Assembly: GCA_963920765.1 (NCBI GenBank)
Contig: OY987246.1
Span: 10,350,868 to 10,414,867, forward strand
Reading direction: 5' to 3'
DNA: 64,000 nucleotides
Source: Ulota crispa
Taxonomy: Eukaryota; Streptophyta; Bryopsida; Orthotrichales; Orthotrichaceae
In this document: positions 1,573 to 64,000 of the stretch, in pieces
Layout of the letters: each line of letters begins with the position of its first letter
How positions within the stretch are numbered: the first letter of the stretch is position 1
Notes under the pieces: generated by a model
Seen by the model: the letters and a program-made list of their open reading frames with translations, nothing else
Told to the model about the DNA's origin: nothing
Databases searched by the model: none
Program-made: the position numbers and the translations under genes

Positions 1573-1842
1573 AAGAATTTAACCATACTTTATGAAGAGT
1601 ATTTATTTGAGTAGAATTGAAACGCAATAGCCAATAGGCCACAAAGCTTTAGTAAATATGTTGTCCAGTGTTAACTCAAGGAAATTAAAAAAAAAAAAAT
1701 TCCTACAACAGATTGGCATCAGCGATCCCAAAAATGATTTTCGCTTTTAGGTAAATTGGCAATAAACCGTGCTAAAAAGTGGAAATTCTCATATTTAACA
1801 CTGTAATTACTTCACATATTTTTTTAGCTGCATTAATTTTAA

Positions 1843-2560
1843 CCCCTAAAGGATCACTTGTCCCTACGAGGGACAAATGGGATTTTGGGCAGGTACTTAT
1901 GGCTAAACTACTTTGTGTAATTTATAAAAACTTTCATAGAAGGTGAGGAATTCAAAGATCTATGTGGGTATCTAATATTTTCCTCATTTCGACATTTACT
2001 GAAGAAGTTAAAAATGAATTTATGATAATTTTTGTTTGATGGGTAGTCCAAAAACTTTTTTAAAAATTGCATTTTAAAAAAACAAAAAATTGAGGTTAGT
2101 TCTTTAGACTTAAATATATGTGGGAGATTTTGAATTATTTAATTTTCATTGATCAGGTAAAAGTTATGAAAAGTTTTAGTTTGCGTGTAGGCATAGTTTT
2201 GAGATTTTTCACACCTACCCGCAAACTAAAACTTCTCATAACTTTCATCTCACCAATTAGAATTGAATGATTCAAAGCTTCCCACATATACGTAAGTCTA
2301 AAGAACTAAACTCAAATTATTATTATTTTTAAAAGAAAATTAAAAAAAAAATTGGGTTGCCCGCTGAACAAAAATTCTCATAGATCCGTTTTCAACTTCT
2401 TCAATAAATATTGAAATGAGGAAAAAATTAGATGCCCACACAGATCTTTGAATTCCCCATCTTCCATAAAAGTTTCTAAAAATTACACAAAGTAGTTTAG
2501 CCATAAGTACATGCCCAAAATCCCATTTGTCCCCTATAGGGACAAGTGGTCCTTTAGGGG
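1843..2560. mobile_element. TTAA element, family A (copy A1), palindromic
   Basis: TTAA at 1839-1842 precedes CCCCTAAAGGATCACTTGTC; the right end is ACAAGTGGTCCTTTAGGGG followed by TTCA (mutated TTAA). The two halves are complementary almost throughout: 'gggcaggtacttatggctaaact' on the left is mirrored by 'agtttagccataagtacatgccc' on the right. The whole element would thus fold on itself. Non-coding. Confidence 0.75.
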
Positions 2561-2564
2561 TTCA

Positions 2565-3485
2565 CCCCTAAAAAACCGTGGCCTTTATTTTGTCAAAAGA
2601 CACTCAAAACTGCCACTTCTATGACAAAGAGTAAAAAAGTTTGAAGATTGGTTTTTTGCATATCTAACCATAGGATCTTGTACTAGACTTGTATAAGAAT
2701 GTGTTGCTCAAAACTTAAAAACTTTGACCACACAGATTGCAAGATATTTGCATTTAAAGTGTAAAAAACAAGCTATTTTGGACCTTGCTCGACTACATTA
2801 TTTGACTTTGAACTTTTTAAACTTAAATTTTTTGCACCATGGAGTTTTGAGGTTTATTTTTTTATGGTGGGGAATTGAGTTGAGAATCTTTGGAAAAATA
2901 CCAAAACAAAAAATACTTAATTTTCATTCTTAAAGAAAACATTAAATAGGGAAAGATTTGAGATTGAACAAAATCTTACATTGTTAATAACCTTGCAATG
3001 GAATTGAGTCACAATAATCCCAATGGTGAGATTGTTCTAGCAAGCAATCTTCACCCTTTCCAATAGTTTGTTTTGCAAAAATGTTAAATTTGCATTCAAA
3101 AATGAAGTTTATAAGTTATTTTTTCAGAGCAAAACCACACCTACCTGCAAACTAAAACTTCTCATAACTTTCATCTCATCAATGAAAATTGAATGATTCA
3201 AAATTTCCCACATATATGTAAGTTTAAAGAACCTATTTCAAAATTTTGTTTGAAAAAATTTAAAAAAATAAAAGAAGCTTTTGGTTGCCCGGGGAGTAGC
3301 ATTTTCTAGATTTTCATCCATAACTTCTTCAATAAATGTCAGAATGAAGAAAAAGTTACATTCCCACATATACCTTTGAATTCCTCACCTTTGATAAAAG
3401 TTTCAAAAAATCACGCAAAGTAGTTTAGCCATAAGTACATGCCCGAAATCCTTTTGTCCCTGAAGGGACAATGGTCCTTTAGGGG
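2565..3485. mobile_element. TTAA element, family A (copy A2)
   Basis: It starts directly at the TTCA shared with copy A1, with CCCCTAAAAAACCGTGGCC, and ends GGTCCTTTAGGGG before TTAA (3486-3489). The left half, from TTTGTCAAAAGACACTCAAAA, is the same subfamily as 46299-47199. The right half resembles the arms of A1. The open frame at 2724-2933 is an internal chance frame. Confidence 0.7.
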
Positions 3486-3489
3486 TTAA

Positions 3490-4699
3490 GGTAGCAATCT
3501 TACAAAATCTAGCCAATTTAAAGATCACTCATTGGCATTGGAATATATAATAGATTTCTTTAATAACAATAAAGAAACAGTTGCTATGGCCAGTTGAATT
3601 TGGTTTGGCATTGTAAAATTTTAGATAATAAAATTTCTAAGTCTCAAAAATATTTTAAATCTCATAATATTCCTATGTCATTTAAACACACTGACTTAAC
3701 TTTTTAATAACAAGTATACCCTCCAATCGCTCCCGTACTTGACTTTTCTATGTGAGTTTTTACCCGTACTTGACTTTTCTATGTGAGTTTTTACCCGTAC
3801 TTTCCCTACCTTTTCCTCTCCCTCCCCTTTACTTCAATTTCAAAATTTGAGAACATAGAGACACCCAATGTTATAAAGAGTTTCAAACTTATAAAAGAGA
3901 ATTGAACTTCTAACAACTTTTCATCCTCCCTTTCAATGCCTTTTTTTCTTCCCCTTATGAATTTCAAGTTTTTAAGTGACTCTTAGCCATCCAATGTTTC
4001 ACATTCAATGTTTTAAAATATTGAATTTGAAAAATTCCAATAATCTCACAATTCTAATAACCTTTCACCCTCCATTTGAGTGCCTTTTGCTCTCCCGTCA
4101 TGACGTTTCACCCCTTTGATGCATTTTTCTCTCCTTTCCTCTCTTTATTAAAACTTGTGATGTTAAAGAATTATTTCATGGCACATCATCATTAGACATT
4201 TTATCATGAGACGTTGTTTCATGAGACACACCATGCTTCATAATACAGATAGATTATACTTGATCACACTATGAAAATAATCTAAAATATGCATAATTTG
4301 TTTTGATTATCGCAAAATTTTGTAGAGTGTGATTATTCCCGATTTACCTATAACTGATTTGAACTTCAACATCGAAGAAAATCAACAAAATCACATATTA
4401 ATTTCTACTAAGCATTGACATTTATTATTTCAATTATTTTTAGGTATTTCACAACTTTTAATATAACAAGCAATGACTTTATTATGAAACATTTCATAAA
4501 TGTTTTTTGAAAAAACCTAGTCTACCTATAGTACATGAATTCTTATATATGTTCTGTTATAAAAGTTTTCATCAACTAGTAAAAGAGTCCAAATAGTGCA
4601 GAGACTCCTTTACATCGACTTACATAAATTCCAAGATAATCAAATCTAATTAGTCTGAAGGGTAGCCATGCCTTCCATCCTTGTTCTCCAAGCAGAGTT
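3490..4699. other. Gene-free AT-rich spacer with a small tandem repeat
   Basis: Apart from the period-31 repeat at 3732-3803 (CCCGTACTTGACTTTTCTAT unit, two and a third copies), nothing was recognised. Pyrimidine-rich runs occur at 3800-3960 and 4060-4150. Confidence 0.4.
3732..3803 (+). repeat. Tandem repeat, period 31
   Basis: The unit CCCGTACTTGACTTTTCTAT followed by GTGAGTTTTTA starts at 3732 and 3763, with a third start at 3794 (CCCGTACTTT). The first two copies are identical, so it is recent. Confidence 0.8.
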
Positions 4700-4703
4700 T
4701 TAA

Positions 4704-5614
4704 CCCCTAAAGGACCCGACTCCCCTTTTTTTTGCAACATAGGGATTTTGGGCAAGTACCTATGTTTGGAGCTTTTCATATTTTAGGTTGAAGTTTTAAT
4801 AGAATGTGGGAATGAGGTCTATCTTTTATATGCACTAAATTTCATGACATTTGGAATTATGAGTACAAAGTTATGGCCTAATGTGTTATTTTTTACGTTT
4901 GTTGGGTAGCCTGGGCATATTTTTAAAAATCATTTAAAAAATAAAAACAAAATCCAAATTAGTTTAGGAGAATTATGTGAAAGTAGGAAGCTTTGAATCA
5001 TTTCGTTTTGGTCATCAAGATGAAAATTATGAAGATTTTTGGTTTGCGGGTAGTTATGGGTTCTCTACTCTAAAATAAACTTTGAAATCCTTTGTTTCAC
5101 TCAATTTCAACATTTTGGAAAAAAACAAAACCCAAGGATGTAGATTGTTTATTACAACATTATGACCATTGGGATTGGCATTTTTCATTTCCATAATTAA
5201 ATTCTTAACAATTTAGTGTTTTGAATCATTCTCTACTTCTTTTTACTTACTAATTTTTTTTGTATGTTATACAATTCCAAATGATTTGAAACTTTTTTGA
5301 CATGTACTTTACTTAGGTGGAATAAGGAATTTAGAGAAGCACCACCCACACGTCCTTCTTTCCTTAAGGATTTCACCTTTTGAAGGGTAGCTGCCCAGTT
5401 TTTGACAAGACGTTTTTGAATATTCAAACCATTATATCTTCCAATCCACATGGTGAAAACTCTGAAATTTTTTTCACATCTTCTAAAACAATTCTTCTAC
5501 AAGATCCTACGGTTGCATATGCATAAAAATGTTTTTATCTTCAAATTTGATTGATGCTATAAAAATGGCAGTTTTGGAGAGTTTTTGATGAAAACTTTGC
5601 TTGGTCCTTTAGGG
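4704..5614. mobile_element. TTAA element, family A (copy A3)
   Basis: TTAA 4700-4703, left end CCCCTAAAGGACCCGACTCC, right end TTGGTCCTTTAGGG, then TTAA 5615-5618. Its internal sequence (TTTTTTTGCAACATAGGGAT, GGGTAGCCTGGGCAT) matches the element entering the right edge of the window at 63580. Short minus-strand frames within it are not genes. Confidence 0.75.
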
Positions 5615-5965: not shown

Positions 5966-7810
5966 CCCTTTAAGGACCACACCTATTTTCACAAAATCCA
6001 CTAAAAACAAGGGTTATAAGTTTAGATGTGCAATTGACTCAAATATAGACCCATTTTCAGTAATCCAATCGTACAAATGGGAAATACATCTTGTTTACTG
6101 TAAAGTACCAAAATTTCATTAGATTTATTTTTGGAGGTGAAACATTATAATGAATGAGTGGGCCGTATGCGGAAAATCTATAGTGTTTCATGCTTGTGTG
6201 GTTTTGAATGTTAACCCCTAAAGGCCCATTGTCCCCTCGGGGAACAAATGGGATTTTGGGCAGGTACCTAGGACTAAACTACTTTGTGTGATTTTTTGAA
6301 ACGTTTATTGAAGATGGGGAATTATAAGATCCACGTGGGAATCTCATTTTTTCTTCATTCTGACAATTATTGAAGAAGTTATGCATGAATAACTGAAAAA
6401 CAAGGGAGAATTGGGCAGCATAAAAAAATTGGAACTTTTTTAAATAAAATTTTGAATTTGGTCCTTTAAATTTTTATGTATCTAGGAAGCTTTGAATCAT
6501 TCAATTCTGATAGATGAGATGAAAGTTATGAGAAGTTTTAGTTTGTGGGTAGGTATGGGACTCCCAAACCTCCATTCCTTTTCCCCTTTGTAAGACTTAT
6601 TGCTTTATTTTTTGAGCTCTTTGTGTACTTTTTTTTTGACTTTTTTTTTGCAAGTTGTAGTAGACTAAGATTCCTTGGTTTTCACCATTTGGATCAAAAA
6701 AAATTGGGTTTTTGAATTTTACATAAATCCTCCAATTTTGCCTAGTGTATATGCAAATTTCATGACCTTACGACATTGCAGGATTTTACAAAGTATGATC
6801 CACACCTCTGTTTCATTTGAAAATTCTCCCACATTTACCTAACTTGGTCTTCTACATGGAAAAAATTAACCTCAACTTGGCATAGAGCAATTTTTTTGAT
6901 ACAAGAGCCATCAAAGGCTTTTGAAATTTTTGGTCAACCGGAAAAAAAACTTTTGTTTTCACTTCAGATGTCAATATCTCACTCCTCTACAACTAGAATG
7001 AGCTAATTTTTTTCCCACAAGTACCTCCCATAGTCTAGGGCAAGATCTTCTAATTGGATTTCCAAAAAAAAAAAATTACATTTCTCCTCACTCCCCCAAA
7101 AGTGGCAGTTTTAAGTGATTTTCACAAAAAAAGGGCTTGGGCCTTTAGGGGTTAACGCTTCATGCAGGCTTTGATTGAAAAGAGCCTTTCATCTCTAGAA
7201 AGGAGGGTTTCCCACCTTTACAATAAGACTGGTTTCACACAAAATAGACAAAAATAGCAATCACAAGGTGTAAGTAAGTGGACAAAAATGGTCAAAAAAC
7301 CCACTTTCTTTGCTACCCTAAAACAATTCTACAAGAAATTTGATAACTATTTGGAAAATCCAATTGTTGAAAACAATCAAGAATAGGTCTTAAATGTTGG
7401 ATGACAAATTTTAGAGCCAAAATGACAATGTTATTTTAGTAGATCTTCAAATACTACAATTATACAACTACCATATAGGAAAACAATACAAGCGTATTTT
7501 GTAAGCAATTTGATTTTTTTTAGAATTGTGCAATTGAAATTTGGCATTCTTCTTGCATACTTGATGGACTGTGTTGTTGCTTTGATCCATCTTTGACAAA
7601 AAATGGATACGTATTTTGAAACCATGCCGTATAAACACCATTATTTGTCAACTCACATACTTGATTGCATTGTTATTTTTTTAGATGGATGCAAGATTCT
7701 TGTGATCACAAGCGTTCTTCAAGACCAAATTCTAAATTATTGAGCGATTTCAACCTACAAGCCAAAAACCACTCCCAGCAACCAAAATATGGTCGTGTGG
7801 TCCTTAAAAG
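5966..7810. mobile_element. TTAA element (copy A12) interrupted by copy A4
   Basis: TTAA 5962-5965 and left end CCCTTTAAGGACCACACC; right end GTGTGGTCCTTAAAAGG before TTAC (a mutated TTAA, 7811-7814). Removing the inner TTAA element 6215-7151 leaves about 900 bp, the usual size of the family. This supports nesting: an older element split by a younger one. Confidence 0.65.
6215..7151. mobile_element. TTAA element, family A (copy A4), nested
   Basis: TTAA 6211-6214, left end CCCCTAAAGGCCCATTGTCC, right end GGGCCTTTAGGGG, TTAA 7152-7155. Internally it has the same order as 37316-38229 in reverse (GGGATTTTGGGCAGGTACCT near the left; GTGGCAGTTTTAAGTGATTT near the right). It sits inside the older element 5966-7810. 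Non-coding. Confidence 0.8.
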
Positions 7811-7814
7811 GTTA

Positions 7815-8714: not shown

Positions 8715-8730
8715 GAGTGGAACAGTTGCA

Positions 8731-10548
8731 ATGTTGAGGGGTTTCCTTCGAGCCAGCATATGCCACTCACGGCACCAGATATTTGCGGAAGGATACGTGC
8801 CACGAATCGTCTTGAATGACAGTCAACGTTATCTGTCAAGGTCTTCGAGGCGACATGGGGAGCAAAGCTTGGGCAGAGGCAAGGGCAAGGGTGGAGAGGC
8901 CTCTCTTCGGCAGCACAGATTGGCCTCGGAGGTGAAGGCGATCGTCAGCGCTGCTCTGCAGCAAGGGCCGTATGATGCTGCCCTTCTACAACGATGTGGC
9001 TTTGAAATTGAAGAGGTTGATTTTTCCCCACTTTTTTCTGAAATCAAGTCATTCAACCCAACCCTCTGTGTTGACACACACGCTATATTGCAGTACCTGT
9101 CATGTTGTGTTCATATTTGATTGGGACAACTTTAAGTGTGCGTTCGTTTAGAAACCTCTCCAAAGTATTGTCATTGGATAAAGTCGAGTGTACCCTGTAG
9201 GAATTGGTTTACATCTGTTGAAGTGTATGACACTGCAAACTAGCTCATTGTGAAATTAGTTCTCAACATATATCTTTTTAACGTTGTAGACTTGTGCACT
9301 TGATTACATGGAGTTATGTAGCATTATGAAAACACAGTGCTATATGTAGAAGGGGCGTTAAAGAAAGGGAAAATTTCATGGATACCCTTGAAGTTTGCAA
9401 TATTTACATAGGTACCCTTGCTTTTTCAAAAATTACACAAATTCTCAATATCCTTGGACCGAAATTTTCAGGCATTTATTTTGTTGTGCATGCCACTTCC
9501 CTTCTTCCTTTGTGCGCATGTTGCTTCTTTTTTGTTTCAGTACATTCCTTTCTTTAACATTGGTCTTGAAGAAAGTACAAGCACAACAAATGAATGCCTA
9601 AATATTATGGTCGAAGGGTATTTGTGTAATTTCTGAAAAAGCAGGGATATCTATGTAAATATTGCGAACTTCAGGGGTACCCATGAAATTTTCCTTAAAG
9701 AAATCTATGGGTGAGGAAGATAGGCTAGAACCCTTTTCATACCCCTTTTTCACACCTGTTGGAAAATCTTTATTATCCAATTTGAATGCAATTTCGTGTG
9801 AGTAGACAAAGTGTGAGGCAGCAGGGATGTCGAACCTCGTGATTCCTTTGCAAACTTGTTCTAAAATTCTGTTTGCAATGCAATTTTTCTTTCCTCAAAA
9901 TCACTATCCTCATAAAGTTTTAGAAAGTGAATCGAAAACCAAAAATCAACATGTTTTGGAAGCCATTTCTAACATCCCAATTGAAGTTAGTTTTGAAATT
10001 CATGTTAATGTTCTGTGCTAGGGTATCATAGTGTAAAATTCTCTCTTTTGTTTCAAGTTTTCCATTTTCAAAATTCTAGTGATGGTATCGTATTGTACTT
10101 ACTATGTACTCTCAAATATTTGTTTAAATGCGATCAAGATTGTTCTAAAGTAAGTTTAGATCATGAAAAGTTTGTAGTTGAGCAAAGGATATTGTCTTGC
10201 ACTTGGTAATCCTGGTTTGGTGATATTGACGAGGTTAGGGCATGCCTTGTGGTTTAGTATCATAGTGAATCTTTCTAAATTTTGTTTGTGCTACGTACTG
10301 GAATGGTTGCGCAGGTTAGAATGAGCAGTGACCTAAGACAAGCTTTTGTGCTGTGGAAAGCGCTGCCGGGAATGCTTCAGACAGCGGAGAAAGAGCTGCA
10401 GGCGCAGGGGAAACGGCTGCGCTCGCTAGTGTTTGAGCACCTGTCTTTGCCATTCTCTCCAGCCATACAGTTTCGCGCGGATAAACTGAATCCTCAAGCG
10501 CAAGCCATTGATGATGTTCTCTCTAAACTGGACGAAGAAAGTGACTGA
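8731..10548 (+). CDS. RBFA: RbfA-type ribosome-binding factor, probably mitochondrial (2 exons)
   Basis: Exons are 8731-9015 and 10315-10548, giving 172 aa. RbfA is a small KH-fold protein that binds the small ribosomal subunit during 16S-type rRNA maturation. Seen here: residues 1-50 are rich in Arg and Ser and poor in acidic residues (start MLRGFLRASICHSR), like an organelle presequence. The KH region follows, from HRLASEVKAIVSAAL to FEIEE at the end of exon 1, continued in exon 2 by VRMSSDLRQAFVLWKALPG and a C-terminal helix ending in LDEESD. The junction gag^gttgat / gcgcag^gttaga is phase 0 and restores the family's usual order of an E/V-rich strand followed by V-x-M-S-x-DLR-x-A. Reading through exon 1 instead gives a short unrelated tail and a stop at 9120. 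The ATG at 8731 is the first in frame; upstream only TTG is available. Telo-box motifs precede it. Mitochondrial rather than plastid targeting is inferred from the presequence. Confidence 0.85.
9367..9694. mobile_element. Mutator-like MITE (family H, copy 1) in the RBFA intron
   Basis: Both ends carry the same inverted sequence: GGGAAAATTTCATGGATACC on the left and its complement (CCATGAAATTTTCC) on the right. The inverted arms continue inward through 'TTCA/TGAA...aat-attt' to a central stretch. The element is flanked by an identical 9-bp direct repeat, TTAAAGAAA, at 9358-9366 and 9695-9703. A 9-bp target duplication is the mark of the Mutator (MULE) superfamily. It has no coding capacity and lies wholly inside the RBFA intron. 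A second copy is at 61180-61491. Confidence 0.8.
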
Positions 10549-10697: not shown

Positions 10698-10905
10698 TCA
10701 TAACCCTTCAACATCTGAAAGACCCCTTGTGGCCAGTACAATACAAGGTATTTTTCTTGTATATGGAATGGATCCATACCTTAAGAAGTTGGAAGATCAA
10801 CGTGGTTCTAGTGAGCTATTTTGAGATCTCAAATTAAAACTTCTTGTTGGATGCCAATTATATGGCAACGTATCTACTATGCCCATGGGACATTTAAGGG
10901 TTATG
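10698..10905. mobile_element. Short TTAA-type MITE (family E), degenerate copy after RBFA
   Basis: The segment runs from 'taacccttcaac' to 'acatttaagggtta' and matches the two better copies (36863-37088 and 48960-49180) over its length. Shared blocks include 'aggtatttttcttgtat', 'ttctagtgagctattt(g)aga' and the TTGTTGG/GGCAA region. The flanking TTAA is mutated on both sides. It begins about 150 bp after the RBFA stop codon and may be part of that gene's 3' UTR. Confidence 0.6.
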
Positions 10906-11800: not shown

Positions 11801-11809
11801 AATTTGTAT

Positions 11810-12205
11810 GGGGATTGATATGTCTACCACACCTTGGGGGTAAATTTTAGATTTCTACCATCAAAAAGCTGAATTTGAGAATTTGGAATTCATATTTGGA
11901 CTTTGGACTTAGAGATTGTGATTTAGTTTAGAATTATAAAAAGGTTCTAATTGAACAACACCCAATGAAAAAGCTTATTTTTTTTATAAGCAAAAGTAAA
12001 AGTAATATTTCCCCCAAGCTAAGCTTTTTCATTCGGTGTTATTCAATTACAACCTTTTTTTTATGGTTCTAGACAAAAGTAAGGTCTCTAAGTCCAAATA
12101 TGAATTGCAAATTCTCAAATTCAATTATTTGATGGTAGAAACCTAAAATTTACCCCAAAAGTGTGATAGAAAAGTTGAAAGGGTGTGGTAGACATATCAA
12201 TCCCC
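11810..12205. mobile_element. Mutator-like foldback MITE with 9-bp target duplication (family G)
   Basis: Perfect 15-bp ends GGGGATTGATATGTC / GACATATCAATCCCC are flanked by identical 9-bp repeats, AATTTGTAT, at 11801-11809 and 12206-12214. The arms stay complementary for most of the length, meeting near 11990 in the AAGCTTATTT/AAGCTAAGC region, so the transcript would fold into a hairpin of about 390 nt. The long TIR and 9-bp duplication place it in the Mutator superfamily as a non-autonomous element. A diverged half-copy is visible at about 49560-49720. Confidence 0.85.
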
Positions 12206-14809: not shown

Positions 14810-17800
14810 TCATCCTGTTCCTTCCAAAGTATCAGCGTCGATCTCTAAGGCGTCATCTTCCTCTTGAAAACCTTCGTCACCGTCCAAATTTCCAGCAGGA
14901 CGAGATTTGATGAGCAACTTCTCTTTGATTGCTCTCACCAGCATATCAGCTAAGTCTGAATGTTCTTGCAAGTATTTCTTTGCACCCTCCCGTCCATTTG
15001 CAAAGTTCTTGCCCTCGTAGGAAAACCATGAACCTGACTGTCCCAGAAAACCATGCTTCACAGCTAAATCGAGGATTTCGCCTTCACGAGATATCCCTCT
15101 CCCATATTCAATATCAAACTCTGCGGTTCTGAATGGCGGTGATACTTTGTTCTTCACCACTTTCACTATGATAGCACTTCCAAATGGCTGCGTCAATTAA
15201 CAGACGATTTTTCTCTGTGTTAGTGAGGACTAGGATTTTTAGGTCACAAAAGCTGACTAGGAGGTTTAAGAGGAATGGCCAAGGAAGTGATTACCACATC
15301 TCCACGTTTTAGCTGTTCCTTTTTCCTGACTTGTAAGCGCACAGATGCGTAGAACTTGAGAGCATTTCCTCCAGCTGTTACTTCTGCTGTAGGTCCTCCA
15401 CTACCATATGTGTTGAGCTTTGCTCGGGTCTGTAATCAACGTAGCAGTCACATCACAACAAAAGGTTCAGCACTCACAGTTTTTCATCATTTCCCTATAG
15501 TGAAACAGTACCACCGCATACTGAACAAAACCTTCTGGCAGAAATTTCATCCATAAAATTGCTGAGTTCAAAAACCACTCGGTTAATACCTGGTTTATAA
15601 AGATCAGCATACATTGGGAGGAGTTGAGAGAGTGAGTTAGTCTGCGGAGTGCCTTGCTCATCAGACGGGCCTGCAAAGCCATCTGGGCATCGCCCATATC
15701 TCCTTCCAGTTCAGCTTTTGGCACGAGCGCAGCAACCTGCCCCGACCCCAAATTATCTCAGTTCCAGACTTGTCAAGCTACGGTGCTTGTTCCTTGAAGT
15801 CTGAAACAGAAGTTCATCATAATTTCCCTCTCGGTACTCATCTCTAGAGATGCCACGCAATATTTTCTGCACATACTACAACAAAATTCTTGTCCCAAGT
15901 CAAAGACACGGCGAGGCGAACATGAAATCTTCTTGAGAGGGCCAGAACGGGTATTACGCTGTCAACGACGATAACATCAACCCCCGTTGAGCGTATAAAG
16001 TGATCAACGGTGTCCAGAGCCAGTTCGGCATAATCTGGCTGAACAAACAAGAGGTCCTTCGTGTTCACACCGATTCCTTCGGCGAAATGCATGTCCAAAG
16101 CATGTTCCGCATCCACAAACAGACAATGTCCTGCACTACCACGTCCTGTCAGATACCGTGTAAATGGGAAGATAGGACTGAATGTGGCCGATACTGGCAC
16201 AGCAACAAAACTTAAACCTACCTTTGCATTCAATCTACATAAACCACAACAGGGTTCACCTCTTCCTATTTTCTGAGCCTCCGCAATGACATGAAGCGCA
16301 ATCGTCGTCTTCCCTGAAGCTTCTTGACCAAATATCTCCACCACCCGACCCTGCCACATGAGCAAGGATTCGTTCAGAAAACCTCGAATGATGTGAAAAC
16401 TCCACAAAAGAATACCAAAGCGTAAAGTTCGTTTACTTAGTTGCAACACGCAAACTTATTCATTTTGGTTCCAAAATCTTAGTGACATCATATTCTATGT
16501 TGCCTATATGTCTCAGCGCTGCAATCAGGTAACCTTACTTTACTACCCCTTCAATATTGGTTTACAAACTCTCACTTTGAATGATTGCATAAGCGATTAT
16601 CCAACATGTCAAGCGAGCAAAAAAATGATCCTGAGAGAATTTAGCTGCTGAAGTATCGAAAAGTACTGAACTCTCCAGTAAGCTCTATACTGCTCTCCCA
16701 ATGAAAGCTGACTTATGCATGTTGGTTAGAATGCTTGAAATGACGCAAATAGTACCCTCAATTTAACATACCTTGGGACGCACAAAATAAAAACAAGACC
16801 TAGAAATGCATCGAAGGAAGGAGTCACTCACCCTCGGTAAACCGCCAACACCTAAAGCAATGTCCAGATTCAAAGAGCCAGTAGGCACGACATCGACATT
16901 GTTATGGTTCTCCCGCCCAAGCCACATCACAGTCTCTTTACCATGCTTCTTAGAAATCTGGTCTATTGCAGCTTGTATGAGCTTCTGTTTCTTGTTCTCC
17001 TGGTCTATATCGGGATTATCTGCGTCGGTAACCTCGGCTGTCTTCTTCACCCGCCTGCCTACTTCCCACCCATGGCACTCAAAGTTGACCCCAAGACACA
17101 AAAGAAGCCCAAACCGAGCCTCAAGTAAGCCATTTCTAGTAGTTCATATGCGGACTTTCTTTTGTCTGATTTTAGTTAGTTCTTCACTAAACACACGCAG
17201 TGTGCTTCACTGATTCCAGTGAGGTAAAAATAACTCCATTTGTATTATACAGTATTATCTATTCACAAGGTTCTGATTTACTATCATAAAAATCTTGGTC
17301 ATTTAGGGCACAAAAAAGAGGACTATACTTGCAAGAATCCTTAAAACCTACACCCCTCCATGCACTCACAACAGAATCCATACACTCTCAACCTGGACTG
17401 TCTTAAGATTTTGACCGATTTCTGGGATAATATGGAGATGTGAGAAGCTTGTATGACATGGACATGCGACAGCAGTGTAAAACCCTCGCTCCTAAAACCC
17501 TAACTCCTAAAACCTCCACCCTTTCTACCTTCATTTCCTCCATTTTAATTGCGTCCTCTGGTGGTATTAGAGTGTGATAGTGCAAACATAAGGGTGGGTT
17601 TAAACCGGAAACGTTCATTTCTAGGATTCTGGTGACATTATAGAATTGCACCGTTTAGACATATCTACAACGAAACTAGATTTGCATATAATTCACATGT
17701 CTGTTGTTGCTGGGACAACAAAAAAACTCAATACGGTACCTCTTTTAGTTTCAGTAGCGAAAGCAGAGCTCCGGGCAAAGAAGACCGGCGCAGCAACGTC

Positions 17801-19460: not shown

Positions 19461-19665
19461 TCAATGTCCACTTAAAAATAGACTATAGTACAAAAGTAAA
19501 AGTGCAAAAGTTGTATAAATGGGATTTTTCTTATACAAATCTTAACCTAATAAGCTCGATGAAATTTTCACCATTGTTCATTTAGCCTTGCTAAAAAGGA
19601 CGACAAACTAGTTATCTATAATAAGCACATATGAAAATTTGAATTTGATAGGGCCAAGGGCTTAA

Positions 19666-36862: not shown

Positions 36863-37088
36863 CCCTTAAACGACCATAGGGCATAGTATATATGCTAACG
36901 TATAATTGTCATTTGCTACCAATAAGAAATTTTAATTTGGGATCTCAAGTAGCTCACTAAAACCGCATTAATCTATTCTCCAACTTTTTTGTTAATCTCA
37001 AATATAGGAGAAGTGTGAATCCATTCCAAACACAAGAAAAAAACCCCATATTGTACTGGTCGCAAAGGGCCTTTCAGTAGTTTAAGGG
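36863..37088. mobile_element. Family E MITE in TTAA, intact copy
   Basis: TTAA 36859-36862, left end CCCTTAAACGACCATAGGGC, right end TTTCAGTAGTTTAAGGG, TTAA 37089-37092. It is about 226 bp, and matches (inverted) 48960-49180 and the degenerate copies at 10698 and 19666. Non-coding. Confidence 0.75.
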
Positions 37089-37315: not shown

Positions 37316-38229
37316 CCCCTAAAGGCCCAAGCCCCTTTTTCTATGAAAGTCACTGAAAATTGCCATTTTTTGAGGAATGAGTAGAAAAGTAGGAACAAAA
37401 GTTTTTTTTTGGAAATCCAATTGTAGGGTCTTGCCCTAAATTGTAGGAGGTGCTTGTGGGAAAAAAATTAGCTCATTCTAGATGAAGAGGAGTGAGATAT
37501 GGACATTTGAAGTGAACTTTTTTCCCCAGATGTCCAAAAATTTCAGAAGCCTTTAATTGCTCCTATATCAAAAGATTACTTTATGCAAAGTTGAGGTTTA
37601 TTTTTTCCATGTAGAAGACCAAGTTAGGTATGTGTGGGAGGATTTTCAAATGAATTGGAGGTCTACAACATACTTTGTAAAATCTTGCAATGTTGTAAGG
37701 CCATGAAATTTGCATATACACTAGGCAAACTTGGAGGATTTATGTAAAATTCAAAAATCTAAATCAGTTTGATTCAAATGGTGAAAACTAAGAATCTTAG
37801 TCTACTACAACTTGGAAAAAAAAGGTCAAAAAAACAAATACTCAAACCACTCAAAAGGTTAAAATACCAAATTTTACAAGGGGCAAAAGGAATGGAGGAT
37901 TGGGAGTCCCCCAAGATGGGCACCTTCCACTCCACTCCACTTTGCCCAAGTGTTCACACATTGTGCCCACAAGGGTTGACCCTCTTTGGAGTCAACACCT
38001 ACTTACAAAGGAGAGGCCATGTCCAAATTGCCCCTTCTTGCCAAGTTTCAAAAAATTCTTGATAATTTTATCATCGAATGTCAGATTGAAGAAAAAATTA
38101 GATGCCCGCGTAGGTCTTGGAATTCCTCACTTACAATAAAAGTTTCAAAAAATCACACAAACTGGTTTAGCTATAAGTACATGCCTAAAATCCATTTGTC
38201 CCTTGAGGGGGCAGTTGGGCTTTTAGAGA
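37316..38229. mobile_element. TTAA element, family A (copy A5)
   Basis: TTAA 37312-37315, left end CCCCTAAAGGCCCAAGCCCC, right end GGGCTTTTAGAGA, TTAA 38230-38233. Much of it matches 6215-7151 in reverse. Frames at 37769-38276 are three overlapping reading frames of the repeat and not a gene. Confidence 0.75.
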
Positions 38230-39023: not shown

Positions 39024-39955
39024 CAACCTCTAAGACTGTTTGTCCGTCCGGGGATAAATGGATTTTGGGCATGTACCTATGGTTAAATTATATTGTGCAA
39101 TTTTTTAAAACTTTTATTGTAAGTGGGGAATTCAAATATCAATGTGGGCATCTAATTTTTTTTTCATTTTGACATTTGACAAAGAAATTATGCATGATTT
39201 TATGAAAATTTGGGGAGGACTGCACATCCTAGCAGCCCAAATTTTTTTTTAAATTAAATTTTTTAAATTTTGTTTTTTGAAATTGGTTCTTTAGATTTTT
39301 TTATACGTGAGTAGCTTTGAATCATTCAATTTCAATCAATGAGATGAAAGTTATGAGGAGTTTTTGTTTGTGGGTAGTTAGGGATTCTCTACTCTAAAAT
39401 AAACTTTGAAGTCCTTTATTTTACTCAATTTTCATTATTTTGGAAAAAAAACTAAACCAAAAGAAGTAGATTGTTTATTGCAACATTACAACCATTGAAA
39501 TTTGCATTTTTCATTTCAATAATTAAATTCTTAACAATTTAGAATTTTGACTCATTTGCTACTTCTTTTTACTTACTATTTTTTTCCCATGTGTTGTATA
39601 GTTCCAATTGATTTGAAAATTCTCCCACATATAACTAACTTGATCTCCTACATGGGAAAAATAAACTTAAACTTTGCGTAGAGTAATTTTTTTGATATAA
39701 GAGTGGTCAAAGACTTTTGAAATTTCTGGGCAGCAAGGATTTTTTTTTTTTTTTTTGCACTTTAAATGTAAATATCTCACTCCTCTCCATCTCAATTGAC
39801 ATAATTTTTTCCCATAAGTTCCTCTAGTAGTCTAGAACAAGATCCTACGGCTGGATTTAAAAAAAACAAATTTTCTTACTTTTCTACTCATTCCCCTAGA
39901 AGTGGCAGTTATCAGTGACTTTAACTTGAAAAAAAAGCTCACTTGCAGACATAAC
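39024..39955. mobile_element. TTAA-family A element, worn (copy A6)
   Basis: The interior is clearly family A: GGATTTTGGGCATGTACCTA near the left and AGAAGTGGCAGTTATCAGTG near the right. Both ends have decayed (AACCTCTAAGACTG on the left; no clean CCTTTAGGGG on the right), and TTAA cannot be assigned. It ends close to an ATTTTATTTTT microsatellite-like run at 40040-40115. Confidence 0.55.
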
Positions 39956-43047: not shown

Positions 43048-43945
43048 CCTCTAAATGCCCAAGGCACCAGCTTTTGGTGTTCAATTTTTTTAAGGAAACT
43101 ATGAAACCATGTTGAAGGCACAAAATTGGTTGTTTTAAGGTTTTTATTTTGGAGAAGTTGCAGATTGAAGTCAACTTCAATTTTCAATTTTAATTTCTTC
43201 CACATCTTATTCCAATTGTTTTTGGGGGAAGCTAAATTACAAGCATACCTTTTGTGTCATGAATAGTGTTGTAAATAGTGTCACATAGTCTATGACAAGT
43301 TGCCACATTGAAAAGACGGGCATCAAGTTGAGAAAAAAGGGAGGATTTCCCTTGGGCACTCTTGTAGGCAATAATGGCCCTTTTACTTAAAATTTGTTAT
43401 CTAACAAAATCTATAAGTGCTTGGATTAACTTCCCTTGGAATGCTTTTTTTATAAAAATTAAAATTTATTCACCATTGAATTTTCATTTCATTCATAATG
43501 ATTTTTGGTTAATAATTGAAGCTAAAAAATATCTTTGAATTAGGCGGTTGCACTTTGATAGTTGCATTGCAGGCTCATTTGTGATACCGTGGTCATGGAT
43601 ATGGAAGGAGGGCAATTAATTTTCAAGTAAAGGCAATATACACTAAAGTATCCTAAGTGGTTGTTTCCCAATTTTGTATCCAAAAATTGCCAATTTGCAT
43701 TAAGAATTTTGGGCAATTCTAAAAAAATTAAGCAAATAAATTCCATATTCATCCACATTCAATCACAAATTTCTCAAAATTTGTGTGATCATTTTGGATT
43801 AATTAGATAGTGCCATCTAGAAGCCTTGAAGTTCAAGATTCTATGGTTACAAGTTTACTAATAATCTACAAGAACAATTTAAAAACTTCAAAACTGCCCT
43901 TCAATAAACGAGAAAAACACCCTTGGGCCCTTGGGCATTTAGAGG
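43048..43945. mobile_element. TTAA element, family A (copy A8)
   Basis: TTAA 43044-43047, left end CCTCTAAATGCCCAAGGCAC, right end CCCTTGGGCATTTAGAGG, then TTAT (mutated). Same subfamily as 61906-62872: both carry the TTTTGGTGTT block near the left, then TTGCATTGCAGGCTC/TTGCATTGCATCTTG and a CATGGATATGGAAGGAGGGC-like block. The frame at 43540-43758 (-) is chance. Confidence 0.7.
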
Positions 43946-47203: not shown

Positions 47204-48955
47204 AAGGAAAAAGCTTATGAAGAGATTACAGTAACCATTACACCAAATCTTGAATATGTTGTGCAAATATACTTATACAGTGATTCACAAAGATGAGTCA
47301 GTGTTTGGCTGCTTTTCAATAAATAAGCAATGCCATCACATGGAGTGAACAATTCAACAAGTAAAAAATCATTTTAAAGAGCAAAAGCTTTACTGATTAT
47401 TCACATGAAAATTGAAAACATAATACACATGATATATGGAAGCACAAAAAGTTTAAAATCAAACCCCCTCATTGACTTAGTTTTGGATTTGTGTGTATAC
47501 ACACACTCAAGAATCAATAAATATTACACATTTTTGGAAAGATCCTTCAAAACCACTAAGAGACCTTGGTTCCTCAAAGGAAATCATCTTTGTACAAATA
47601 GGCATCACTTGTTAATAAAAGATGGACATATTATATTTTGGAACATAATTTTTTATTTGTTAGTGATATGGTGTCCATTAGAAGAAAAATGTGTCCTAAA
47701 CAACTAATTCACAACAACTATAAATATCCTAGACAAATGTACAAGAATTCCATTACAATCATTTAGGACATTTGCAATTGTTGTGAACCAATTGTTTAGA
47801 ACACATTTTTCTTCTAGTTCTTTGTATTTTACTCTTAGTTGAGCTTGATTAAACAAAATCTAACCATTGAAATCTAACCATTAAGGATATGTCCAAGAAT
47901 GTGAAAATGTAACCTAGCTCTTCATGTAAAATGATATCCCTCACCATTCCTGTGGTTCAACATGCTACTGCCCACTATAAGGGTCTCTTTCCATGTTATG
48001 TAGTTCATTTTGACAGACAAAAGACTTTTTTTCAGTTTTGTCCAAGGTTAAGTAAAACTACTCAACAGACTCTTTACGTACAACCGGCTCAAGGGCCGTT
48101 CACACTTATGTCCCAAGCCATAAATTCCATTGAATTTTCAAAACTCCATTTTGTAAAACTAGGAATACAAGCTTCACACTATCACCCAAGAATTAAATCT
48201 TAGTTCATTTAAATTTACATGATACCACATTTTGGAAAGTTTTAGTTTAAGAGAAAGGAGACTTGCCTGCCAAAATTTGGTTCAACAGATATTCAAAACC
48301 AACTTGGGAGCCAAGTCCCAACAATTTTGCTGCATAAATTATTAAAAAATATGGTTTTTTCTAATTTCTCTATTTTGCCTTTTGCAACCCAACTAAGGTT
48401 GGAGTGTTAAGCTAAACCACGATTTAAACATTTGGAACCGTGGACGTATTGTGAACCTCCCTTTTGGACTAAGGTTTACTCTTCCAACCAATATCCTCTG
48501 CAAGGGGTACACAATAGTCATCTCCAAATAATGGAAGGCCCCTTAGGGCTAGACCCCAAACCAATTTCCTGGAAGATCTTGAGCTTCGTTGGTAAAAATC
48601 TTACATTTCTCAAATTCAATTGGTCTTTCCATACAATATTGCCTATGTACATATACTATTATTTCAAACTTTCCAAAAATCTAGTCAATTTTATTTAAAT
48701 GATTCAAATATCAACAGGATTTTTTTGACATTTCACTTGGTTGACATTCTACTGTTTTTCAGATTTCCCCGCTCATTGCCCCCAAACCAACCACATGTAA
48801 ATTAATTTATAAAATTTGAGAAGCACATTGGTAAAGCAAGCTTGCCAAGAGAAAAGGTTAGTTGACATGCATACTTGTGGAACCAGAGTGGCATAATCTC
48901 AGTATTTATACAAACCAGGATAAAAGTAATAATTTGCTCCCTATTTTTACATTCT
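47204..48955. other. Gene-free stretch with one hairpin MITE
   Basis: Contains the hairpin at 47676-47818. The plus-strand frames at 47405-47707, 47931-48203 and 48432-48805 have no recognisable domains; the first runs into the MITE. Confidence 0.3.
47676..47818. mobile_element. Hairpin MITE with CATTAGAAGAAAAATGTG ends
   Basis: Left CATTAGAAGAAAAATGTGTC and right ACACATTTTTCTTCTAG are complementary, as are the inner CACAACAACTATAAAT and CAATTGTTGTG parts. The end sequence differs by one base from the CACTAGAAGAAAA type at 35361. A target duplication is not clear. Confidence 0.6.
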
Positions 48956-48959
48956 TTAA

Positions 48960-49546
48960 CCTTTAAATGATTGAAAGGCCGTTTGCGACTAGTACAATAC
49001 AGGGTATTTTTCTTGTATTTGGATTGGATCCATACCTCTACTACATTTGAGACCAACAAAGAAGTTGGAGAATATCAATGCAATTCTAGTGAGCTACTTG
49101 AGATCCCAAATTGAAATTTCTTATTGGTAGCAAATGACAATTATACGTTGGGGTATATACTATGGCCTACGATTGTTTAACCCTTAAAGGACGGATGGAT
49201 CACTGTGGCTTGCCTTGCCTGTAGCAGTCTACAATGTTTTGCACATGGGCACCAGTAGTATTATTTCAAAAAGTTGGAAAAGTCAACAGTGCATGGTGCC
49301 CTCATAAAAATTGCAAGAAGGGCAGCTTGAGAGCTAACACCATGTTTCTAAATCTTATCACAATTTAGGTTACAAAAAAAAAATGAATGCATCTCAAGAG
49401 TTAATTTTTTGTCTTCCATGATGGACATGTGTTTATGGTCACTTTAGAAAAAAATCATATGAAAAACAACTTTTTTTTTAATCACATAATCCTTTTTCAG
49501 AGCTGAAGGACGTTTTCTGTCCTTCTTGATGTTTAGGAGTTAAGGG
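48960..49546. mobile_element. Family E MITE split by a family F element at its own TTAA
   Basis: TTAA 48956-48959, left end CCTTTAAATGATTGAAAGGC. The element matches 36863-37088 inverted, up to GATTGTTTAA at 49180. Its last bases, GGG, and the outer TTAA (49547-49550) lie only after the inserted element 49181-49539. The intact terminus would read GTTTAA-GGG-TTAA, as in the other copy (GTTTAAGGGTTAA at 37080-37092). Confidence 0.75.
49181..49539. mobile_element. Family F element inserted into TTAA
   Basis: Left end CCCTTAAAGGACGGATGG, right end CTTGATGTTTAGGAG; flanked by TTAA at 49177-49180 and 49540-49543. Internal blocks (GTCAACAGTGCATGGTGCCC, TTGCAAGAAGGGCAGC) recur, inverted, at about 13695-13750 and 29215-29250. 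About 359 bp, non-coding. Confidence 0.7.
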
Positions 49547-49550
49547 TTAA

Positions 49551-50090
49551 TGATATTATTCTCCAAGGTTAGAGAATAATTCAGGTTCCAAATCCAAATC
49601 TAAATTCCAAATTTCCAAATTCAATCTCCTGATGGTGAATAGCTAAACTCTTACACACTTTCTGGCCGGTAGAAAGTTGAAATTTTATACCCTGGCCCCA
49701 CAAAATGACATGTTATCTAACGTCAGCCCTTGCCAAGAGCCATTGTCACTTATCTTTAGACAGTGAAGTTTACGCCCTGCAACCAATGAATCTCCCACCA
49801 TGATGCAAAGTGGCTTATAATGCCATGTACCACGCATTGCCCATATCCATGTGCAGTGCACATGGATATCAGCATCAATGGTAACAGCAACATCAATCGT
49901 TCATCAATATCAATACTGCACTTGTACTGGACCGTCACAGGATGACTTGAATTTGCATGTAACCCAACCCCAATACATTTTTTCACATTGAATTCTCCCA
50001 CGAATCTCACTCCCTCACTCACACAAGCAAAAGAATTACCCCTCACGGCCACTTGGTCTCTCCATTTTTGGACGTGCTTAAAGTTTTTGA
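49551..50090. other. Spacer with a worn half of a family G element
   Basis: 49560-49720 resembles one arm of the Mutator-like element at 11810 (TTCCAAATTCAATCTCCTGA TGGTG; AGTTGAAATTT). The rest is gene-free and less AT-rich. A minus-strand frame at 49756-50052 has no recognisable domain. Confidence 0.35.
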
Positions 50091-60625: not shown

Positions 60626-60627
60626 GA

Positions 60628-61109: not shown

Positions 61110-61179
61110 AGAAACAATACTAACCTACAACAACTCAAGCAAATATTACACAACAAGAGAAAGGTCACATTAATAATTA

Positions 61180-61491
61180 GGGAGAATTTCATGGATACCC
61201 TTGAAGTTTGCCATATTTTCATACATACCCTTGCTTGTTTAGAAATTTCACAAATACCTTTGGATCTGAATTTTGAGGTGTTTGTTTTGTTGTGCATGCC
61301 ACTTCCTTCTCCCTTTGTACGCACACTACTTCTTTCTTGTTATATGTGTGCACAAAGGAAGTAGGAAAGTGACATGCACAACAAAACAAACACTTGAAAA
61401 TTTTGCTCCAAGGACATTTGTGAAATTTCTGAAAAAGCAAGCGTATCTATGAAAATATGACAAACTTTCGGGATATCCATGAAATTTTCCC
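61180..61491. mobile_element. Mutator-like MITE (family H, copy 2)
   Basis: Ends GGGAGAATTTCATGGATACC and GGATATCCATGAAATTTTCCC. Flanked by identical 9-bp repeats TAATAATTA at 61171-61179 and 61492-61500. The internal order is the same as copy 1 (9367-9694), including GTTTTGTTGTGCATGCCACT at about 61281 and its complement further on. This second independent 9-bp duplication confirms the borders of the family. Confidence 0.85.
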
Positions 61492-61500
61492 TAATAATTA

Positions 61501-61905: not shown

Positions 61906-62019
61906 CCCCTAAATGCCCAATGCACCAAATTTTGGTGTTGAGGAAACTTTGAGACCTTCTTGAAGGCAGAAATTTGAAAGTTATATATGTTTTTTTGGAG
62001 AAATTTGGGTTTGAAGTTA

Positions 62020-62149
62020 CACTACAAGGAAATTATGGTTAAATCTATAAAAAGTTGACAAAGATTGTGACCTAATCTACAGTATATTATAGGTTAGGTC
62101 ACAATCTTTGTCAACTTTTTGTAAATTTGACCATGATTTCCTTGTAGTG
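62020..62149. mobile_element. 130-bp hairpin MITE, CACTA-type ends (copy 2)
   Basis: Starts CACTACAAGGAAATTATGGT, ends CCATGATTTCCTTGTAGTG; flanked by TTA at 62017-62019 and 62150-62152. Same length and internal order as 30331-30460, with a few substitutions. The target sequence around it, GAAGTTA/TTAACTTC, is itself palindromic. Confidence 0.8.
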
Positions 62150-62751
62150 TTAACTTCAATGTTTGGTTCAGTGTCCTTCATATTACATTTCAATTATTTT
62201 TGGTGGAAGCTAAATTGTAAACATGCCTCTTGTACACTAAAAATATGGTAAATAGTGTCACTAAAGAGCTTATGACAAGTGGCAACATTGAAAAAATGGT
62301 CAAAAAGCTGAAAATAAATTCAAGATCTGCCCCTTGGCAATGAGGGTCTTCTACTAAAATCTCAACACTTAATAAAATTCAAATGTGTTTTTGTGCTAAT
62401 TTCACTAGGAAGGTTTTTGTTATACAAATTAGAATTCTTCCACAATTGAATCTCTTTATTGCAATGATGTTTGATCAATAATTGAAACTAAAAAATTCTT
62501 TGCATTAGGAGGGAGCTCTTTTACTGTTGCATTGCATCTTGTTTGGGAAGCTGTGCTCATGGATTTGGAAGAAGAGTCATTAGTTTTTAAGTAACAATAA
62601 TAATCACTAAACCACTATAAGTGGTTGTTTCCCAAATTTGTACTCAAAAATTGCCATTTTTATATACTAAGTTTCTAGTAGCTTCAAAAAAAACAGTAAA
62701 TCTTGTACTCAACCACATTCAGTCACAAATATCTTGACACCCATGTGGCTT

Positions 62752-62756
<5 letters not shown>

Positions 62757-62788
<32 letters not shown>
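62757..62788. repeat. (TA)n microsatellite
   Basis: About 16 uninterrupted TA units inside family A copy A10. Confidence 0.95.
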
Positions 62789-62789
<1 letters not shown>

Positions 62790-62872
62790 CAACACCATAT
62801 AGAGGCCTTGAAAAATCTTATGGTTACAATTTTATATCAATGTTAATCTCTAAAGGGCCCTTGGGCTTTAGA

Positions 62873-63163
62873 GATATGGTACCAAATACAATTGCAACAA
62901 ATGTTTAGAAGTTTGAATTAGATGGAAATTCAGTGTTACAACCATACATATTGAAGGGTTGTACGATGGTGGGTGCATAATTCTTTTTGGAAAGCCCTCA
63001 GAGCAACTCAAATATGGTTGTATATATGGCCGTACATACGGCCAGAGATGGCCGATGGGCCGCTCAGGAGTTAAGTTTTTGTTTATAAATTTGAGGTCAT
63101 TGTTATGGCACAATAATGGATGCTTGAAGAGCACGGGAGGTTCAAAGCTTGGTAGACCTCTCT
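62873..63163. other. Spacer between repeats
   Basis: No gene. GTATATATGGCCGTACATACGGCC at 63018 is a small palindrome (GGCCGTACATACGGCC). Overlapping frames on both strands (62868-63134, 62959-63210) are chance. Confidence 0.3.
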
Positions 63164-63561
63164 ATAAGGTAGGCACACCCATAAGCGTGGAAATAAGGGT
63201 TTTGGAGTAGGTAAAACAATTGACTAACTTTGAAAAAAATATTGTATGTTAGGAAATGGAAACCAAAAATATTGGCATCAATTTCAAGGTTGCAACTGCA
63301 AGCATTTGTTCACAAAGACTTTTCAAAGTCCAAAATCAGTGAAATTGTAGGAACCATATGTAAGAGATGCTAATCACAAGGCTTGTTGGTTCTTAAATAG
63401 TGAGATGGGTACTCAAAACCTCATGCTAGTCACCCACAACCGTCACTTCATCACCCATAACCATCACTCAGTCACCTACAACCATTTTTTTTTATTGATT
63501 AGCCTTGCCATTGTTAGGTAATGGGCATGGAGATGCAACGCTTATGGATGCTGCTACCTTA
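63164..63561. mobile_element. Family D TIR element, copy 3
   Basis: Ends ATAAGGTAGGCACACCCATA and TTATGGATGCTGCTACCTTAT. The order is inverted relative to copy 1: the ACCAAAAATATTGGCATCAA and TTGCAACTGCAAGCATTTGT blocks come first, then CACCCATAACCATCACT-type units. Confidence 0.65.
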
Positions 63562-63579
63562 TATGCATAAGTTGGTTAA

Positions 63580-64000
63580 CCCCTAAAGTCATGAACATCT
63601 TTTTTTTTGGCAATGTAGCAATTTTGGGCAGCTCACAGCAATGGGTTTTTCATTTTTTTTCTTTGAAATTTTCACACATAATGTGTCCAAGGAGTAGTTT
63701 CAAGGCCCAACAATTTTCATGACTTTTGACTTCATAGTTCAAAAGTTATTGCTTGATATGTAGTTTTCTTTGAGAGGCGGGCAACCTAGGCAACTCATAA
63801 AACTTTTTTTAAAAGTAACTTTTTTGAATTTTGTTTTTTGAAATTGGTTCTCTAGATTTATACATGGAAAATTTTAAATCATTTCATTTTTATCAATAAG
63901 ATGAAATTTATGAGGAGAGTTTGTTTGCGGGCAATTATGGACTCTCTACTCTAAAATAAACCTTGAAGTCCACTATTTTACTCAATTTTCATTATCTTGG
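63580..64000. mobile_element. TTAA element, family A (copy A11), cut by the window edge
   Basis: TTAA 63576-63579 followed by CCCCTAAAGTCATGAACATC. The interior matches copy A3 (GCAATGTAGCAATTTTGGGC; later GGACTCTCTACTCTAAAATA). The right end lies beyond the window. Confidence 0.7.

What the first reader, a model, noticed from the sequence alone, without database searches (positions are those of the whole stretch)
1839..64000. A large group of about 0.9-kb elements bounded by TTAA with CCCCTAAAGG ends, resembling piggyBac behaviour
Seen: at least ten segments (1843-2560, 2565-3485, 4704-5614, 5966-7810, 6215-7151, 31221-31864, 37316-38229, 43048-43945, 46299-47199, 63580 onward) start CCYCTAAAKG right after TTAA and end in its complement right before TTAA. 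Full-length copies cluster around 900-940 bp. Known: piggyBac-superfamily elements insert at TTAA, duplicate it, and have ends beginning CCC. Inference: a non-autonomous TTAA-targeting family, either piggyBac-related or an independent class. piggyBac elements are not a usual component of land-plant genomes, which makes this worth a search.
Basis: partly seen in the sequence, partly recalled or inferred. Interest (0 to 1): 0.75.

Follow-up and report, generated by a model that had tools for sequence, protein, structure and literature searches.

The report
piggyBac transposons crowding a moss genome
The repeated DNA segments in this moss chromosome are short, gene-less relatives of piggyBac, a jumping-gene family best known from insects and mammals, and the same genome also carries many decayed copies of the enzyme that would have moved them.

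Summary
TTAACCYCTAAAKG occurs 22,981 times genome-wide, against 20 for the reversed pattern. TTAA is the duplicated target: copy 6215-7151 sits inside another TTAA element, and 39 of 40 listed genome matches to the joined host run uninterrupted across that site; the two read carry one TTAA there. The genome holds 120 scored matches to the piggyBac transposase domain (PF13843, best E 1.3e-73), on contigs C1-C11. A 5,738-bp element on C5 carries such a transposase between 14/14 inverted ends CCCCTAAATGCCTA with TTAA on both sides. Window copy 43048-43945 aligns with both termini of that family, so it is an internal-deletion derivative. The 3' half of the 937-bp family aligns with the 3' ends of two other transposase loci; its 5' source was not found. 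Short copies come in several length classes, down to 71 bp. None of the 13 transposase loci read at length is intact with both ends; activity and other plants could not be tested. Eight literature searches listed no moss piggyBac paper.

The parts
1843..2560 (.). 718-bp fold-back element, CCCCTAAAGG ends; its two halves are 81% complementary along the whole length; TTAA left, TTCA right
2565..3485 (.). 921-bp element abutting the previous one; right end perfect with TTAA, left end CCCCTAAAAA behind TTCA; a composite of parts like 46299-47199 (84%) and like the first 345 bp of the 937-bp family (80%)
4704..5614 (+). 911-bp element, TTAA both sides, right end one G short
5966..7810 (+). ~0.9-kb TTAA element of a second family (CCCTTTAAGGACCA ends), split by the element at 6215-7151; 39 uninterrupted relatives listed in the genome
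6215..7151 (+). 937-bp element, perfect ends, TTAA both sides, inserted in the 5966-7810 element; 39 further near-full-length copies listed at 89-92% identity
31221..31864 (.). 644-bp element (CCCCTAAATG type), TTAA both sides; two copies read elsewhere are 90% and 92% identical
36863..37088 (.). 226-bp element CCCTTAAACG...TTTAAGGG with TTAA both sides; a short related family with further copies or pieces at 10701-10904, 19662-19751 and 48955-49180
37316..38229 (-). 914-bp element of the 937-bp family, TTAA both sides; right end degraded
39040..39937 (+). body of a 937-bp-family copy whose ends no longer match
43048..43945 (+). 898-bp internal-deletion derivative of the transposase-bearing element family on C5 and C4
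46299..47199 (+). 901-bp element CCCCTAAATC...GATTTAGGGG, TTAA both sides
61906..62748 (+). copy related to 43048-43945, left flank TTTG, broken by a ~130-bp palindrome at 62020-62149
63580..64000 (+). left part of an element cut by the window edge (TTAA CCCCTAAAGT)

Best explanation
The segments are non-autonomous (MITE-like) members of the piggyBac superfamily in the nuclear genome of a moss. Shown: TTAA target duplication; CCCY inverted ends; transposase-bearing elements with the same ends in the same genome; sequence descent of one short family (43048-43945) from both termini of such an element, and of the 937-bp family's 3' half from another lineage's 3' end. Inferred: piggyBac transposase made by autonomous copies bound the ~14-35-bp ends of the short copies in trans, cut them out at TTAA and reinserted them at new TTAA sites, while internal deletion and fold-back rearrangement produced the length classes. 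The one lineage whose frames I compared was kept functional for a long time (dN/dS 0.09-0.19 in 5 of 6 comparisons). The transposase loci read at length are now broken by stops or frameshifts or lack recognisable ends, so current activity is doubtful but not excluded.
For: Ends and counts. Target duplication: 30 copies fetched by element sequence alone have TTAA left in 24, right in 26, both in 21, with no clear base preference outside TTAA. Genome-wide, 6,783 CCYCTAAAKGCCCA ends: 5,934 are preceded by TAA and 5,644 (83%) by TTAA, so the outer T is kept in 95% of TAA cases, against a TA-only duplication. Empty sites: 39 of 40 listed matches run across the 6215-7151 insertion site, the fortieth being the window's own right part; L075 and L076 read with one TTAA. 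Transposase: PF13843 120 matches, best E 1.3e-73; the two PDB sequences matched by two of these proteins at E up to 10 are piggyBat and T. ni piggyBac transposase. Element A, C5:10867270-10873007: of 150 TTAA pairs around the transposase, one has a 14/14 inverted match (CCCCTAAATGCCTA, 5,738 bp apart), the next 8/14. L065 has both CCCCTAAATGCCCA ends, 5,448 bp, TTAA left and TTGA right. L062 has a different lineage with 12/14 ends CYCCTTGAGGAC, TTAA both sides, 5,300 bp; next pair 10/14 of 315. Descent: 43048-43945 vs A, L065, L066; 937-bp consensus 415-940 vs L063 79.6%, E 1e-131, and 429-940 vs L064 75.8%, E 4e-99. Catalytic columns over 13 copies: D in 12, 9, 11 and 13. Selection.
Against: No intact autonomous copy was seen: element A has two in-frame stops. 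Of 13 transposase loci read over 6 kb or more, 3 show convincing ends on both sides (A, L065, L062), one a weak pair (L016, 10/14), four a 3' end only (L050, L063, L064, L066), one a 3' region without a matched end (L067), and four none (L049, L052, L053, L074, the last with a candidate left end). The 5' 345 bp of the 937-bp family found no counterpart upstream of the three transposase loci searched. In one search, 12 of 17 paralogous alignments lack TTAA at the site (4 TTTA, 6 TTCA, 1 TTCT, 1 gapped); 5 have it. One of four 71-bp copies read (L071) has no TTAA. One recent pair (L065/L067) has dN/dS 1.5. The 0 of 14 control genomes says little: those named are bacteria and archaea. No cysteine-rich-domain profile matched the C-terminal tail.
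Confidence: 0.95

Rival explanations
1. A different TTAA-specific superfamily (Kolobok, Sola3) or an independent class moved these elements, and the piggyBac copies are bystanders.
For: TTAA alone does not prove piggyBac; other TTAA superfamilies exist (recalled; a Kolobok paper with TTAA and MITE appears in the listing). The 5' part of the 937-bp family has no transposase-bearing counterpart yet.
Against: Transposase-bearing piggyBac elements carry the same 14-bp ends and share hundreds of bases of terminal sequence with the short copies. Kolobok and Sola transposases were not searched for in this genome.
Confidence: 0.03
2. Tc1/mariner-type insertion with a 2-bp TA duplication and ends ACCCC...GGGGT.
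For: TTAA-CCCC...GGGG-TTAA can be read as TA duplications around an ACCCC element.
Against: The outer T is present in 5,644 of 5,934 ends preceded by TAA; the transposase in the elements is piggyBac.
Confidence: 0.01
3. The piggyBac sequences are contamination from an animal or another organism in the assembly.
For: The assembly has some foreign or chimeric material (L057 on contig C97).
Against: Matches lie on contigs C1-C11; the ends number 22,981 and copies are nested in other repeats of the same genome; the copies are deeply diverged and degraded (30-81% identity among 13).
Confidence: 0.01

Closest known systems
piggyBac (Trichoplusia ni) transposase and element, PDB 6x67/6x68
   Same: Sequence match over the DDE region (E 2.5e-13 and 3.6e-20); D268 and D346 of the chain align with D in the moss proteins; TTAA target and CCC-starting inverted ends (recalled for the insect element)
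   Different: Full moss elements found are 5.3-5.7 kb (insect element ~2.5 kb, recalled); host is a moss; short copies with ends in five figures
piggyBat (Myotis lucifugus) transposase, PDB 9c0f
   Same: Best PDB match of element A's transposase (E 7.4e-16); the alignment runs through the GVDxxDQ motif
   Different: Host; no intact copy seen here
Coral CMITEs (PMC2872659, abstract and section list seen)
   Same: MITE families tied to piggyBac-like transposons of the same genome
   Different: In corals the internal region is more conserved between families than the ends; here ends and subterminal parts tie short copies to transposase elements
PiggyBac named for plants: C-fern repeat table (PMC6890710), angiosperm MITE review (PMC10004981), plant TE review (PMC10794571), piggyBac mining paper (PMC10813416); passages seen
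   Same: The superfamily name applied to plants
   Different: The passages read show no transposase-bearing plant element, no empty-site test and no comparable copy number (C-fern: 1,230 pieces, 122 kb)

Membership tests
piggyBac superfamily | 4-bp TTAA target site duplicated on insertion | tested here: met
piggyBac superfamily | Short inverted ends starting CCC/CCY | tested here: met
piggyBac superfamily | Transposase of the DDE_Tnp_1_7 (PF13843) family encoded between the same ends | tested here: met
piggyBac superfamily | DDD catalytic residues | tested here: met
   D268/D346 aligned; columns counted in 13 copies (12, 9, 11, 13 with D); D447/D450 numbering is recalled
piggyBac superfamily | Cysteine-rich C-terminal domain | tested here: inconclusive
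   tails of A, L066 and L067 are rich in C by eye; Pfam gives no match over a cut-off for the L066 tail
piggyBac superfamily | Seamless excision and transposition | not testable with these tools
   needs a cell or in vitro assay
piggyBac superfamily | Subterminal internal repeats besides the terminal repeats | tested here: inconclusive
   one search lists only short shared words
Tc1/mariner | TA duplication only, with free outer bases | tested here: not met
PIF/Harbinger (Tourist) | 3-bp TTA/TAA duplication | tested here: not met
   TTAA on both sides and a single TTAA in empty sites
Kolobok / Sola3 | TTAA duplication with their own transposases | not tested
   no search for their transposases was made

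The most novel reading that the evidence does not exclude
piggyBac has been a long-standing, diversifying resident of the moss lineage rather than a stray in one genome: several transposase lineages, many pairs of them only 30-50% identical, at least one kept under purifying selection, have repeatedly thrown off MITE families, down to a mostly uniform 71-bp palindromic element made of little more than two ~35-bp ends, which would define the minimal mobile unit of the superfamily. Some end-less loci could be transposase genes kept by the host.
Probability: 0.4. Interest if true: 0.72.

Novelty: new member of a known kind. Interest (0 to 1): 0.6.

Why it matters
piggyBac is a working tool in animal and plant engineering, yet the plant papers I found only name it and show no transposase-bearing plant element. 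A moss genome with 22,981 exact ends and many transposase copies gives a plant-native set of piggyBac transposases and ends to study and bears on how these elements entered or stayed in the green lineage. It also warns that repeat annotation of moss genomes could file such copies under other classes. The 71-bp class offers a natural test of how little DNA a piggyBac end needs.

Tried and rejected
Element B (L050): its 5' end was not found up to 3.8 kb upstream of the transposase. The element around L016 gave only a 10/14 pair, no better than the best pair seen for B (11/14), so it is not counted as proven. L049, L052 and L053 showed no matching TTAA ends, also after L053 was extended to 10 kb. 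L074 was fetched to find both ends of the 937-bp lineage and gave only a candidate left end, TTAACCCCTAAGTG at 806. A plasmid search with the 937-bp element gave no match. A tree against animal or algal piggyBac proteins was not attempted, since no collection of eukaryotic proteins other than PDB chains is on hand, so vertical descent versus horizontal transfer stays open.

Paper searches bearing on piggyBac in mosses or plants: (one search was for the organism). They listed 20 of 99, 3 of 3, 25 of 243, 25 of 86, 15 of 25, 10 of 10, 25 of 395 and 15 of 890 papers. None of the listed titles is a paper on moss piggyBac elements; several listed papers with one or a few mentions of the word were not opened. 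The Niphotrichum moss-genome hit was the word 'piggybacking'.
Full report
What was checked. The window is bases 10,350,868-10,414,867 of contig C5 in a 274.8-Mb, 157-contig assembly. Contigs C1-C10 are 41.37, 36.98, 34.06, 25.69, 25.64, 22.91, 22.03, 21.16, 19.14 and 15.79 Mb. They match, within 0.01 Mb, chromosomes 1-10 of the moss Ulota crispa (cbUloCris4.1: 41.37, 36.98, 34.07, 25.69, 25.64, 22.92, 22.04, 21.16, 19.14, 15.79, and 6.3 for chromosome 11; PMC11803377, passages seen). The paper gives 275.00 Mb in 408 scaffolds and a 123.54-kb plastid genome. Here there are 157 contigs, and the contig with an intact rbcL (C157) is 112.5 kb. So the name is an inference, though a tight one; rbcL reads as a plant's by eye.

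The observation. The motif is far beyond chance in the window (27 sites at up to two mismatches; shuffle mean 2.89, maximum 9 in 100 shuffles) and in the genome (22,981 exact TTAACCYCTAAAKG against 20 for the reversed pattern). Matches to six library sequences cover 8,251 of 64,000 window bases. About 420 of these, at 11808-12157 and 49567-49636, match a palindrome that also lies inside element A. That leaves about 12% of the window, with the families at 5966, 31221 and 36863 not counted.

The target site. Thirty copies of the 937-bp family were fetched by element sequence only (30 of 42 listed matches; one of the 30 is the window copy itself). Left TTAA 24 of 30, right 26 of 30, both 21 of 30; bases beyond TTAA show no clear preference. 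Genome-wide, 6,783 CCYCTAAAKGCCCA ends: TAA before 5,934, TTAA before 5,644. Copy 6215-7151 lies in a ~0.9-kb element of another family. Removing it and one TTAA gives a 904-base sequence with 40 listed matches (40 of 2,413 candidates scored): 39 run across the junction and one is the window's own right part. I read two of the 39. L076 is identical to the joined flanks through GGTTTTGAATGTTAACGCTTCATGCA; L075 has two differences in the 46 bases shown, one next to the TTAA; both have a single TTAA. Among five other copies with paralogous host repeats (17 alignments), 5 alignments have TTAA at the site and 12 do not (4 TTTA, 6 TTCA, 1 TTCT, 1 gapped). TTAA is thus target, not element end.

The partner. 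PF13843 finds 120 stretches (116 of 528 first-look candidates scored), best E 1.3e-73, on contigs C1 to C11. None of 14 control genomes has it, but those named are bacteria and archaea, so this control is weak. Two distinct PDB sequences match two of these proteins at E up to 10: T. ni piggyBac transposase and piggyBat. Element A (C5:10867270-10873007) carries a frame with two in-frame stops, from an acidic N-terminal part through the DDE domain to a cysteine-rich tail (by eye), between 14/14 inverted ends CCCCTAAATGCCTA, flanked TTAA/TTAA. A blind comparison of 150 TTAA pairs around the transposase gives this pair and nothing else above 8/14. Relatives L065, L066 and L067 align with it over the coding part and the last ~670 bp (77-80%), and L065 has both ends. 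A second lineage (L062) lies between 12/14 ends of a different sequence, also TTAA-flanked.

The link from short to long. Counting its TTAA flanks (906 bases), 43048-43945 aligns with A over bases 1-135 (70%) and 346-885 (79%), and with L065 over bases 1-299 (66%) and 338-885 (73%), so nearly all of it is terminal sequence of that element family. The 937-bp consensus, bases 415-940 and 429-940, aligns with the 3' ends of transposase loci L063 and L064, and the last ~57 bases of 6215-7151 with L050. The first 345 bases were not found upstream of three such loci; they also match both arms of the fold-back 1843-2560.

Length classes and age. Among 100 listed ends, 20 neighbouring convergent pairs fall mostly into classes near 71, 640, 720 and 940 bp. 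A gap pattern finds 68 places with two perfect 14-bp ends 30-60 bases apart; 50 are printed and 42 of these 50 are exactly 71 bp long. Of four 71-bp copies read, two have TTAA on both sides, one on one side and one on neither; both halves of one (L069) match the 5' end of L065. The 30 copies of the 937-bp family differ from their consensus by 4.9% and from each other by 8.6% on average; they are the best matches to one copy, so this leans young.

Selection and decay. In the A family, five of six pairwise comparisons give dN/dS 0.09-0.19 at dS 0.68-1.34; the sixth, a recent pair (L065/L067, dS 0.045), gives 1.5. The simple reading is long function followed by decay. Across 13 transposases of several lineages (30-81% pairwise identity) the four catalytic aspartates are kept in 12, 9, 11 and 13 (D447 and D450 numbering recalled).

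Mechanism. Shown: the target, the ends, the partner with the same ends, descent of short copies. Inferred: cut-and-paste movement in trans by the piggyBac transposase. Not shown: activity now, the 5' source of the 937-bp family, and how many transposase loci in the genome keep both ends (3 convincing of the 13 read over 6 kb or more).

Place among known things. The target duplication, the ends, the transposase family and the catalytic residues of piggyBac were met; the C-terminal domain and subterminal repeats were inconclusive and movement could not be tested. What is unusual is the host and the scale. In eight literature searches of the held open-access library (listings partly capped) I found no report of moss piggyBac elements. 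Against strict novelty, a fern repeat table (PMC6890710) lists 1,230 PiggyBac pieces; a review (PMC10004981) lists PiggyBac among angiosperm MITE superfamilies; another (PMC10794571) names it among plant superfamilies; and a paper's abstract (PMC10813416) says it was isolated from plants too (passages seen). Subscription journals, Repbase and Dfam could not be checked.

Noticed in passing
G000:C97:118173-118940 (L057): Plastid rbcL (and, by eye, accD) sequence runs in one open frame into a bacterial-looking protein; probably a chimeric unplaced contig.
   Followed up: no
window 9366-9698 and 61179-61494: Two copies of a ~320-bp palindromic repeat (GGGAAAATTTCATGG...CCATGAAATTTTCC) that seem flanked by 9-bp direct repeats by eye, as in Mutator-type MITEs (recalled).
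   Followed up: partly
window 30331-30460 and 62020-62149: 130-bp near-perfect palindrome beginning CACTACAAG, resembling CACTA-type ends (recalled); one copy sits inside the piggyBac-type copy at 61906-62748.
   Followed up: no
window 11808-12157; L051 802-1165; L063 1076-1461; L065 4352-4681; L067 4250-4570 (of its reverse complement): A ~350-bp palindromic repeat inside four of the piggyBac transposase loci and once nearly whole in the window; in L051, L065 and L067 it lies 3' of the gene at a corresponding place, in L063 upstream of it.
   Followed up: no
L049 525-875; L052 422-1054; L053 4812-5546 (minus): Upstream of three transposases for which no TTAA ends were found, open frames share stretches by eye: NGYI/PPPPP in L049 and L052, RHIAKLLGW / RQIAKILGF in L049 and L053. 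Pfam has no match over a cut-off for any of the three. Possibly an extra N-terminal exon or domain of that lineage.
   Followed up: partly
window 15844-16449 (minus): ORF matching Pfam RecA (E 2.2e-30), probably exons of a nuclear gene for an organelle RecA (inference).
   Followed up: partly
window 62843-62882: Tiny palindrome TTAATCTCTAAAGGGCCCTTGGGCTTTAGAGATATG, like two piggyBac-type ends fused head to head.
   Followed up: no
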